Of a stretch of 64,000 nucleotides of DNA, positions 61,247-64,000 are shown one piece after another (the stretch's first letter is position 1; every line of letters begins with the position of its first letter). The position numbers were made by a program, and so were the translations under genes. The stretch is from Apiospora phragmitis. Its lineage: Eukaryota > Ascomycota > Sordariomycetes > Amphisphaeriales > Apiosporaceae. Under the pieces are notes generated by a model. That model searched no databases. It had not been told where the DNA came from and worked only from the letters and a program-made list of their open reading frames with translations. Location of the stretch: contig JAQQWL010000001.1 of the NCBI GenBank assembly GCA_038363925.1, positions 868,001-932,000 of the forward strand, written 5' to 3'.

Positions 61247-61254
61247 AAAAGAAA
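61247..61254 (-). terminator. RNA polymerase III termination tract of the tRNA-Arg gene
   Basis: On the minus strand TTTCTTTT follows immediately after the discriminator base of the tRNA, the expected T-run for Pol III termination; the last four T form the minimal signal. Confidence 0.7.
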
Positions 61255-61274
61255 CGACCCAGACGGGATTCGAA

Positions 61275-61331
61275 CTGAATATGGATGTTAGTATTTGGGT
61301 CAATTGAGCCAATTAGAATGGTGTAACATAC
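61275..61331 (-). other. Spliceosomal-type intron inside the T arm of tRNA-Arg
   Basis: Read on the tRNA strand the 57-bp insert begins GTATGTTACACC, carries TACTAAC, and ends ATCCATATTCAG. These are the classic nuclear pre-mRNA 5' splice site, branch-point and 3' splice-site motifs, with about 13 nt from branch A to the acceptor and a length typical of this genome's introns. Exact removal joins GCGGG to TTCGAAT and restores a perfect T arm. The junction is ambiguous by one G, but the GT-AG choice is the one that matches the branch-site context. I know of no standard nuclear tRNA intron at this position in fungi. Confidence 0.75.
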
Positions 61332-61347
61332 CCCGCAATCTTCAGAG

Positions 61348-61364
61348 TGAAGGAAATCGGTGAA
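61348..61364 (-). other. Canonical tRNA anticodon-loop intron (37/38)
   Basis: Seventeen bases between position 37 (G) and 38 (C) of the anticodon loop. The internal CCGA is complementary to the UCGG of the anticodon plus base 37, giving the anticodon-intron helix recognised by the tRNA splicing endonuclease. Confidence 0.85.
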
Positions 61365-61400
61365 CCGAAATCTGACGCGATACCATTTCGCCACCAGGCC

Positions 61401-62627
61401 CGTTGTTGGATGAAAGATTGAGACTTTTGCAAAACTATATACCCCACCATAGCGAAGAATGGCATATTTGTTCTTCAAGTGGGATGGGGCGCCTAGGGAA
61501 TGGATACCTGCACGTAAGAGGTAGGTAGGATGGGTACCGGTTGGTTCCGGACCCTAATCTAAGTATGTAAGTAGGTACCTAACCTTAGGTAGGAGCGTAT
61601 GTATAGCGGTTGCCCCTGAACCTGTATATGAGAGACCCGAATATGCAAAAGTCAATGCATAATGGAGTCGTGCCGCACCATTTCTTATAAATGATAAGTA
61701 CCTACTCTATGAACCAGATGTTATAGATGACCTTGGAGAGAGCGTGCAGTTGAAGGGATTTCTACTATAAAGTTGCTCCAGGACCCCTGTCGTGGGGGCC
61801 AAGCTATAACCCCCACCATCAAGGCTTATTGTCCAAACCGCCAGCACGGCACTCGGGGCATTTTGGTACATGTAAATGTCAAATCACACACGTTCGAGAT
61901 GCTTGTGTACTGGATAATAGCTTTGGACTCATGGTCTGTATACAGCTTTGGTGAACATCAAGGTAGCATGAGTGCTTGACAAAACTCCGAACGAACCATA
62001 TCTAAGCACCAAAAGCTATACATTTCGACATGTTACCGATGCTCGCATAATAATCGGGTGTCTTATCAGTGTCCCTGCTGGCATGAGACCAGGATGGTTC
62101 AAATACCATAGGCTATGCGACAAGTACGAATCCCGTCTAACAACGAAGTGATTCATAATATACCATGGCCCTTCTTAGCGCTTCAGCTCAAAGTAAGGGT
62201 CTCACGATACGAAGATTCCAATCGCGAATGCCCTGATATCAGGTCATTAAAACGCATATGCAGTGTGAAATCAAGACCGATCCGGTTCCTTAGGATGAAT
62301 TCTTTCCCATTTCACTCTTCCTTGGGACGGCTTAATGTAGAGATAAGAGTCACTACGTGAATGCTTCAAAGGGGAATGCATGAGGTGGTGTTCCAAATAA
62401 GAATGATTGCCTGTGGGTACTGTAGTAGCGAGCTAAGGCACTCGGCAGTCGCCCTTTGCCTGCGGCTGCCTCGTCAAACGGGGATTCGCAAGGCAGGATT
62501 AATACTATATCAATGGCTGTCTAGCCCGGTCTCTTTTCTACTTATCCTCCTCCTCAAGTGCTTCAACCGCTTGAAACACCAAAGAAATCACCTCACTCCC
62601 GGAACTAACCGCTAACGCTGCTTCATC
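61401..62627. other. Intergenic between tRNA-Arg and dynamin-like gene
   Basis: About 1.2 kb. TAGGTA-type repeats occupy about 61518-61600 just upstream of the tRNA. No gene is recognised. Confidence 0.45.
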
Positions 62628-64000
62628 ATGGGGCGCGTTGTGAACGATGATGAGGGCGAGATCTGGCAAAGCAGATCTCCCAGAAGACATCAGGCTTTAT
62701 CCAGTCCAGCAATCATCGCGACCTACTGGATATCGTGGACTCTCTCGATCCCATGGCGTCAGCCATTACGTCGACCTTCCTCAGATCATTGTGTGCGGTA
62801 GTCAGTCCTCGGGGAAAAGCTCCACCCTTGAGGCGATATCGGGCATTGCGTTCCCAACCAGCGAGGGACTCTGCACTCGCTTTGCCACTGAGCTGGTCCT
62901 GCGACGCGGCGATAAGCCCGAGATCAAGGTCCATATCCAGCCGGGCGCGAGCAGAAGCGAGGAGGACAGAATCAAGCTTTCTGCCTTCTCGGAAGGGGCA
63001 ACGGAGCAGGATGACTTCGCAAAGATTATTGAGTCGGCCAAGAGCGTCATGGGGCTTGGCGATGGAGAAGAGTCAAAAGTATTCAGTACGGACGTGCTGC
63101 GTATCGAAAGCACGTCGCCCACTGCACCAAACCTGACGCTTGTCGATCTACCGGGTCTCTTCGGTGCGTCGGACAAGAACCAGTTAGATGATGATGCGAC
63201 TCTAGTCGAAAGCCTGGTGTTGTCCTACATGAAGCAACGCCGCAGTATTATCTTAGCTGTGGTTTCAGCCGACAACTCTTTCGCTAACCAGCCAGTGACA
63301 AAGTTCGCACGAAAGATCGATCCGTCAGGAACTCGAACTCTTGGTCTGATCACCAAGTCAGACAGAATCGACCAAGGCTCGGACAGTGAAAGATATTACA
63401 CCGAGTTGGCCCAAAACGGCAATGTGAAGCTTACCTTGGGCTGGCATGTTCTGCGCAACAAGAGCCATGCAACATCTGATGATAGCCCAGAGCAACGAGG
63501 CGAGAGAGAGTCTGAGTTCTTTTCCAGCTCGGCCTGGCGAATCCTTGACCCTTCGCAACTTGGCGTAGAAGCCTTGAGAGACAGGCTGCGCGAGGCTCTC
63601 TGGAACCAGATACGCATAGGGCTTCCAGGCGTCAAGTCCGAGGTACAGCCGGAATAAAAGACTGCTCGAGCAAACTGAAGCAATTGGGAAAGTCTCGAAG
63701 CACACCGAGGGAGAAGCACCACTATCTCCACCAGATTAGTAGTCGACTGAGTGTCTTGGTGCGAGCTTCCATCGATGGGGTGTACGCCGATGCGTTCTTC
63801 GAGTCCTACCCAGGCCAGCCAGATGCCTTTGAGAGACGCCTTCGCGCAAATGTTCAGACAACACTTGCTAATTATGCCGAAAAGATGCGAGTCTATGGAC
63901 ATGCTCTGGAGATAGTCGAGTCAGGCCTTCAACCTACCCGTACTTCAAAGTACAAATATACGTGGAGAGCTGACTATCTCAAAGTCGTGGAAGAATTGAT
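62628..64000 (+). CDS. Dynamin-superfamily GTPase, N-terminal part (runs off right edge; frameshifts)
   Basis: Large GTPases of the dynamin/Mx/Vps1 group remodel membranes; fungal Mx-like members of this type are numerous and mostly uncharacterised. Seen: QIIVCGSQSSGKSSTLEAIS (G1, P-loop), EGLCTRFATELVLRR (G2 Thr region), NLTLVDLPGLFGASD (G3), FARKIDPSGTRTLGLITKSD (G4), then a middle-domain start LREALWNQIRIGLPGVKSEV, KHHYLHQISSRLSVLVRASI and DGVYADAFFESYPG. Homology-like reading starts as SSNHRDLLDIVDSL in a different frame from RSHGVSHYVDLPQ: one base is missing at about 62744-62747, and another at about 63645-63652 creates the stop at 63655. The start codon is unclear (ATG at 62628 or 62647). 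The stalk and GED regions lie outside the window. Confidence 0.86.

What the first reader, a model, noticed from the sequence alone, without database searches (positions are those of the whole stretch)
61275..61331. A spliceosome-type intron sits inside a nuclear tRNA gene
The minus-strand tRNA-Arg(UCG) gene is split at the T-stem/T-loop junction by 57 bp that begin GTATGT, contain a perfect TACTAAC branch site about 13 nt before the end, and finish CAG. Precise removal restores GCGGG-TTCGAAT-CCCGT. Fungal nuclear tRNA introns are known only after anticodon position 37 and are removed by the tRNA endonuclease; that normal intron is also present here. Two introns belonging to two unrelated splicing machineries in one tRNA would be highly unusual. 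If used, either the spliceosome acts on a Pol III transcript, or a Pol II transcript yields this tRNA, or this is a fresh intron gain that kills the gene.
Basis: partly seen in the sequence, partly recalled or inferred. Interest (0 to 1): 0.92.

Follow-up and report, generated by a model that had tools for sequence, protein, structure and literature searches.

The report
Spliceosome introns inside fungal tRNA genes
In an Apiospora fungus, five transfer-RNA genes of two kinds are interrupted in the same place by what looks like a messenger-RNA-type intron, in addition to their normal tRNA intron, and the pattern of mutations suggests these genes still work, which would mean tRNAs that need two different splicing machines.

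Summary
Confirmed and extended. The minus-strand tRNA-Arg(UCG) gene (61255-61400) has its usual 17-nt anticodon-loop intron plus a 57-bp insert exactly at the T-stem/T-loop junction (53/54), GTATGT...TACTAAC...CAG. The genome (Apiospora phragmitis by protein match) showed three tRNA-Arg(UCG) genes, two with the insert. These two have unrelated flanks, 5/57 differences inside the insert with splice signals intact, and 0/89 outside it. Three of the seven tRNA-Phe genes found carry other 58-65-bp inserts at the same site (GTAAGC...CTAAC...TAG). One of them has six stem changes that form three compensated base pairs across the insert, which is hard to explain for a pseudogene. The last G of each insert completes the Pol III B box; none of the five holds a T4 run or a bulge-helix-bulge motif. 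One U6 snRNA gene here carries an mRNA-type intron, an in-genome precedent for a Pol III gene. Best reading: spliceosomal introns in working Pol III tRNA genes, removed before the tRNA endonuclease acts. Splicing is inferred, not shown. Open-access literature searches listed no report of such introns in tRNA.

The parts
61255..61400 (-). tRNA-Arg(UCG) gene, two introns, 72-nt mature form
   Evidence: RF00005 30.4 bits; mature exons identical to the C11 copy that lacks the insert, one difference lies in the canonical intron
61348..61364 (-). canonical tRNA intron (17 nt, anticodon loop); anticodon-side UCGG pairs with intron CCGA in the fold
   Evidence: (same-length intron in C11 copy)
61275..61331 (-). 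57-bp spliceosome-type intron at 53/54: GTATGT...TACTAAC...CAG
61287..61293 (-). branch-site motif TACTAAC (branch A 13 nt from 3' end of insert)
   Evidence: identical in the C6 copy
61383..61393 (-). A box TGGCGAAATGG
61267..61275 (-). B box GTTCGAATC, whose first G is the last base of the insert
61247..61250 (-). first downstream T run (TTTT), candidate Pol III terminator
61435..61441 (-). TATA-like upstream element (TATATAG)
   Evidence: weak: not seen in every copy

Best explanation
The 57-bp segment is a U2-type spliceosomal intron living in a working, Pol III-transcribed nuclear tRNA gene. Pol III uses the A box and a B box that the intron's own last G completes, and stops at the downstream T run. 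The nuclear spliceosome removes the 57 nt, restoring the T arm; only then does the pre-tRNA have the elbow needed for export and for the tRNA endonuclease, which removes the 17-nt anticodon-loop intron. The same arrangement is used by a second Arg(UCG) gene and three Phe(GAA) genes. SHOWN: sequence anatomy, recurrence at one position in two isotypes, conservation pattern, in-genome U6 intron. INFERRED: transcription by Pol III, splicing by the spliceosome, order of steps, and that the products are used in translation.
For: Splice signals in 5 of 5 inserts: 5'ss GTATGT or GTAAGC, CTAAC with branch A 11-13 nt from the end, YAG; 2 per million random 57-mers. All five sit at 53/54 on the tRNA sense strand. 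Arg pair C1/C6: 5/57 insert differences, none in GTATGT/TACTAAC/CAG, against 0/89 in exons plus canonical intron (Fisher p=0.008; 0/72 exons only p=0.015). Phe C4 differs from the intact Phe C3 at 7 of 73 exon sites: nt 57 (A/G, shared with C10) and six stem sites that form three Watson-Crick-compensated pairs 6:67, 7:66, 49:65, all spanning the insert; 0 of 200,000 sets of six random changes did so (a post hoc null). Phe inserts C10 vs C13: 9/12 linker sites differ, 4/46 elsewhere (p=1.2e-5; the linker was delimited after seeing the alignment). GTTCRANNC B box in 5 of 5, A box in 5 of 5 (for Phe with one extra spacer base allowed), no T4 run inside any; runs of T4-T6 begin 5-13 nt downstream. 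The U6 gene at C8:277890-278049 has GTAAGT...TACTAAC...CACAG between ACAGAGAAGAT and TAGCATGG, with a B-box match inside the intron. S. pombe U6 is described as a Pol III transcript whose mRNA-type intron the spliceosome removes (PMC8917221, passage).
Against: No RNA data. Intact genes exist for both isotypes (Arg 1 of 3 found, Phe 4 of 7 found), so the interrupted ones need not work. The Arg 0/89 result also fits recent duplication plus gene conversion, and five differences all missing the 16 signal bases is weak by itself. The C4 compensations show constraint only if they arose after the insert did; I infer that because C4, C10 and C13 share a related insert while C10/C13 exons match the intact C3 (apart from nt 57 in C10). 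In the Phe inserts the 5' splice site lies in a predicted 8-bp hairpin, which could hinder U1. I could not derive this fungus's own mRNA intron consensus for comparison. No related genome could be searched.
Confidence: 0.76

Rival explanations
1. Spliceosome-type introns were inserted but the genes are dead or silent; intact paralogues supply Arg(UCG) and Phe(GAA) tRNA, and the interrupted copies are young pseudogenes.
For: Intact copies exist: C11 for Arg, C3, C5, C9, C11 for Phe. No RNA evidence of use.
Against: 0/89 changes outside the insert against 5/57 inside; three compensated pairs in Phe C4; splice signals, B box and absence of T4 runs kept in 5 of 5; Phe insert ends conserved while the linker diverged.
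Confidence: 0.13
2. The inserts are ectopic tRNA introns of the archaeal / Cyanidioschyzon kind, removed by the tRNA splicing endonuclease at a bulge-helix-bulge motif.
For: C. merolae tRNA-Ile(UAU) has an intron at the same 53/54 position (PMC9602550, figure-legend passage), and intron junctions in that alga are described as BHB motifs (PMC3978253, passages).
Against: No full BHB (4-bp helix plus flanking helices) at any of the five junction pairs, two topologies, registers within 1 nt; shuffled inserts reach one in 4-10% of cases. GT...CTAAC...AG in 5 of 5 would be a coincidence.
Confidence: 0.05
3. Pol II makes these RNAs as part of longer transcripts; the insert is an ordinary non-coding-RNA intron and the tRNA is at most a by-product.
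For: Spliceosomal introns are mostly on Pol II transcripts; protein genes lie nearby in the window, e.g. a dynamin-like ORF at 62647-63657.
Against: All five loci keep A and B boxes and a T4+ run starting 5-13 nt after the gene; the two Arg copies share little flank beyond about 12 bp upstream, so no common host transcript.
Confidence: 0.05
4. Assembly or sequencing artefact.
For: Only one assembly could be read.
Against: Five loci on five contigs (C1, C4, C6, C10, C13) with diverged inserts.
Confidence: 0.01

Closest known systems
mRNA-type intron in U6 snRNA (S. pombe and other fungi)
   Same: Spliceosomal intron in a small structured Pol III RNA; in this genome the U6 intron is 61 nt, has TACTAAC, and contains a B-box match.
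   Different: Host is a tRNA, not U6; here the intron only supplies the first G of the B box instead of carrying the box; the position is a tRNA loop, not the spliceosome's own catalytic RNA.
U3 snoRNA introns of fungi
   Same: Spliceosomal introns in a small structured RNA; presence can differ between paralogues of one species (PMC5832005, passages).
   Different: U3 is not a tRNA. That paper (2017) names U3 and U6 as the only small structured RNAs known to be often interrupted by an intron.
Canonical nuclear tRNA intron (37/38, tRNA endonuclease and ligase)
   Same: These genes also have one, with anticodon-intron pairing in the Arg fold.
   Different: The second insert is at 53/54, has GT-branch-AG signals and no BHB; the tRNAscan-SE 2.0 paper describes eukaryotic tRNA genes as limited to one intron (PMC8450103, passage).
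Ectopic T-arm introns of Cyanidioschyzon merolae
   Same: Same position 53/54 in tRNA-Ile(UAU), alongside an anticodon-loop intron; there the anticodon intron is removed last (PMC9602550, passages).
   Different: C. merolae tRNA introns are described as BHB-type (PMC3978253, passages; I did not see the Ile 53/54 junction itself discussed); no BHB here.

Membership tests
U2-type spliceosomal intron | GT 5' splice site close to GTRWGT, branch CTRAY, YAG 3' end, fungal spacing | tested here: met
   5 of 5 inserts; branch A 11-13 nt from 3' end
U2-type spliceosomal intron | removed as a lariat by the spliceosome | not testable with these tools
   needs RNA or splicing mutants
Functional nuclear tRNA gene | cloverleaf pairing in the spliced form, internal A and B boxes, downstream T run, no internal T4 | tested here: met
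   (97% of 101 cells paired; the alignment was fitted to the structure)
Functional nuclear tRNA gene | exons under selection despite the insert | tested here: met
   0/89 vs 5/57; three compensated pairs; indirect, nulls set after the fact
Functional nuclear tRNA gene | mature tRNA made and charged | not testable with these tools
   no RNA data
Canonical tRNA intron (37/38, Sen) | position after nt 37 | tested here: not met
   insert is at 53/54; a separate anticodon-loop intron is present
BHB ectopic tRNA intron | 4-bp helix flanked by two 3-nt bulges holding the cut sites | tested here: not met
   0 of 5 (the test covered one topology only)
Spliceosomal intron in a Pol III transcript (U6 kind) | mRNA-type intron in a gene with Pol III signals | tested here: met
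   Pol III use itself not tested
Introner / multi-copy intron family | near-identical copies at many unrelated sites | tested here: not met
   Arg insert: 2 places genome-wide, both tRNA-Arg. Phe inserts: one search listed only C4 and C13; it scored 40 of 47 candidates and did not list the known C10 insert, so for Phe this is incomplete

The most novel reading that the evidence does not exclude
Apiospora phragmitis keeps a class of spliceosomal introns at one universal site (G53|T54-T-C) in Pol III tRNA genes of at least two isotypes. Site choice is explained by promoter logic: an intron ending in AG placed before TTCRA rebuilds the B box, so the gene stays transcribable. Each such tRNA needs two splicing machines in fixed order, which ties part of the Arg(UCG) and Phe supply to spliceosome activity. 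Arg and Phe inserts share no similarity that I could see, so the site may have been hit more than once.
Probability: 0.62. Interest if true: 0.93.

Novelty: new variant of a known kind. Interest (0 to 1): 0.88.

Why it matters
tRNA introns and mRNA introns are taught as two separate systems. tRNA precursors containing both would show that the spliceosome can act on tRNA transcripts, that intron gain extends to Pol III genes beyond U6, and that promoter architecture limits where such an intron can survive. It also means that tRNA finders can miss genes: ARAGORN found neither Arg insert copy here. It is easy to test, because the Arg intron carries the S. cerevisiae consensus signals (recalled: GTATGT, TACTAAC).

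Tried and rejected
Chance motif: rejected. BHB intron: rejected; my first test used only one helix topology, so I repeated it with both. Mobile intron family (introner): the Arg insert occurs only in the two Arg genes; for the Phe inserts the search was incomplete. Interruption of other tRNA families: judged from the spans of scored hits, no other T-arm split in Gly(UCC), Ala, Val(UAC), Glu, Arg(CCU), Ile(UAU), Leu(UAG) (36 of 36 candidates scored), Tyr, Lys, Met, Ser(GCU), Thr, Trp (40 of 47), Leu(CAG), Ser(AGA/CGA), Arg(UCU), Glu, initiator Met, Val(AAC) (40 of 43); split hits there fall at the anticodon loop. 13 places read afterwards hold no intron-sized T-arm insert. Asp, His, Gln, Cys, Pro and Asn were NOT assessed: S. 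cerevisiae sequences typed from recall matched only at initiator Met (7 of 7 candidates). Gly(GCC), Ile(AAU), Lys(UUU), Arg(ACG) were not tried. The tRNA family search scored 63 of 1715 candidates. The SRP RNA match spans 301 bases for 293 model positions, no intron-sized insert. A scan of viral contigs for the Arg junction gave 0. An ORF-based hunt for the window's own mRNA introns was inconclusive: three candidate introns of one gene did not extend a reading frame when removed. Literature: ten searches of open-access PubMed Central; I saw the listed rows only (e.g. 15 of 356, 20 of 32), plus passages of PMC5832005, PMC8917221, PMC10484740, PMC3978253, PMC11782384, PMC9602550, PMC8450103. The 2016 U6-intron survey (Canzler et al., seen only in a reference list) is not held.

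Full report
WHAT IS THERE. The window is C1:868001-932000 of a 52.7-Mb, 19-contig genome. A window protein (Urb1) matches a protein of Apiospora phragmitis at 100% over 97% of the query, on a contig of 2,906,023 bases, the length of C1, so the organism is taken to be that fungus. The minus-strand gene 61400..61255 reads: 36-nt exon, 17-nt canonical anticodon-loop intron, 16-nt exon ending GCGGG, 57-nt insert, 20-nt exon TTCGAATCCCGTCTGGGTCG. Rfam's tRNA model finds it despite the insert (30.4 bits); ARAGORN does not.

NOT CHANCE. GTATGT...TACTAAC...CAG at intron spacing, a pattern taken from the insert, occurs once in the window and only here (mean 0.02 in 100 shuffles). Removal gives a 72-nt cloverleaf identical in its exons to an uninterrupted gene elsewhere (C11:7799950-7800038).

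A SECOND ARG GENE. A search with the mature tRNA found three tRNA-Arg(UCG) genes (3 of 3 candidates scored): C11 without the insert, C1 (the window) and C6:2865353.. with it. C1 and C6 share little flank beyond about 12 bp upstream. Between them the insert differs at 5 of 57 sites, none in the splice signals; the other 89 positions (72 exon, 17 canonical intron) are identical (Fisher p=0.008; exons only 0/72, p=0.015). A genome-wide search with the insert finds only these two places.

THREE PHE GENES. A concatenated search gave split or truncated hits for tRNA-Phe(GAA). Read out, C10, C13 and C4 carry inserts of 58, 58 and 65 nt at the same 53/54 junction: GTAAGC...CTAAC...CTAG|TTCRATCC. The four other Phe genes found (C3, C5, C9, C11) have only the ordinary intron. 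The Phe inserts are related to one another; I see no clear similarity with the Arg inserts in the MAFFT alignment. Their ends are conserved and their middle is not: C10 vs C13 differ at 9/12 linker sites and 4/46 others (p=1.2e-5; linker delimited after seeing the alignment). They are predicted to form two hairpins, one holding the 5' splice site, one around the branch site.

EVIDENCE THAT THE GENES WORK. Phe C4 differs from C3 at seven exon sites: nt 57 (also G in C10) and six stem bases that make three new Watson-Crick pairs, 6:67 (C-G to T-A), 7:66 (A-T to T-A) and 49:65 (G-C to A-T), all closing across the insert; none of 200,000 random six-change sets did so. This null is post hoc and ignores phylogeny, and the argument needs the changes to postdate the insert, which I infer from the shared insert and the unchanged stems of C10 and C13. 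On the five insert-bearing genes 97% of 101 stem cells pair; that alignment was fitted to the structure, and differences between Arg and Phe are not independent evidence, so I rest nothing on its covariation score.

POL III LOGIC. All five genes keep an A box (Phe with one extra spacer base) and a B box GTTCRANNC, and the B box's first G is the last base of the insert. An AG-ending intron at 53/54 therefore leaves the promoter intact. No precursor holds four T in a row; a run of four or more begins 5-13 nt downstream. TATA-like upstream elements are seen in some copies only.

PRECEDENT IN THE SAME GENOME. The RF00026 search gave two U6 places (47 of 2681 candidates scored). The one at C8:277890-278049 has a 61-nt intron GTAAGT...TACTAAC...CACAG between ACAGAGAAGAT and TAGCATGG, with a B-box match GTTCAAATC inside. 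S. [quoted passage not shown]

RIVALS. BHB intron: C. merolae tRNA-Ile(UAU) has a 53/54 intron (PMC9602550, passages) and that alga's tRNA introns are described with BHB motifs (PMC3978253, passages), so this had to be tested; none of the five junction pairs forms a BHB in either topology, although 4-10% of shuffled inserts do, while GT-branch-AG signals are in 5 of 5. Pseudogene: not excluded, because intact paralogues exist, but the conservation pattern speaks against it. Pol II host transcript: unlikely given unrelated flanks and kept Pol III signals.

MECHANISM, SHOWN AND INFERRED. Shown: anatomy, recurrence, conservation, U6 precedent. Inferred: Pol III makes the precursor; the spliceosome removes the T-arm intron in the nucleus; the restored elbow allows export and tRNA-endonuclease cleavage of the anticodon-loop intron. 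The order is supported by analogy only: in C. merolae the anticodon intron goes last and Pus4 does not act on precursors with a T-arm intron (PMC9602550).

HOW COMMON. Adding up by hand the nuclear places printed gives 108 tRNA-like places, including at least one fragment (C8:1261925); 5 have a T-arm insert. This is a lower bound with uneven coverage: most searches scored only the best candidates and several isotypes were not assessed.

NOVELTY. [quoted passage not shown] the tRNAscan-SE 2.0 paper says eukaryotic tRNA genes are limited to one intron (PMC8450103). The rows listed by ten searches of the open-access library held no report of spliceosomal introns in tRNA; most subscription papers are not held there. 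Known intron type, new kind of host gene: I call it a new variant of a known kind.

Noticed in passing
L051 (G000:C4:2638371-2638501, minus): A tRNA with an Arg(UCU)-like body whose extra 58 nt can be cut as GTAAGT...CTAAT...ATAG at 33/34 (ARAGORN's choice; leaves anticodon UUC) or at the canonical 37/38 (leaves GUA). Possible sixth spliceosome-type tRNA intron, or a pseudogene.
   Followed up: partly
L076 (G000:C8:277890-278049): U6 snRNA gene with a 61-nt mRNA-type intron that contains a B-box match.
   Followed up: yes
L075 (G000:C9:3094216-3094328): Second, diverged U6-like gene (64.1 bits) without an intron and with a T run; functional paralogue or retro-derived copy unknown.
   Followed up: no
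Phe inserts in L079, L080, L081: Two predicted hairpins shared by the three inserts, one of them enclosing the 5' splice site, with a fast-changing linker between; role unknown.
   Followed up: partly
G000:C19 (224,601 bases): Looks like an unusually large mitochondrial genome, judged only from 11 tRNA hits in a 225-kb contig.
   Followed up: no
G000:C8:1261925-1261952: 28-bp tRNA-Lys 5' fragment about 200 bp upstream of a full tRNA-Lys gene.
   Followed up: no
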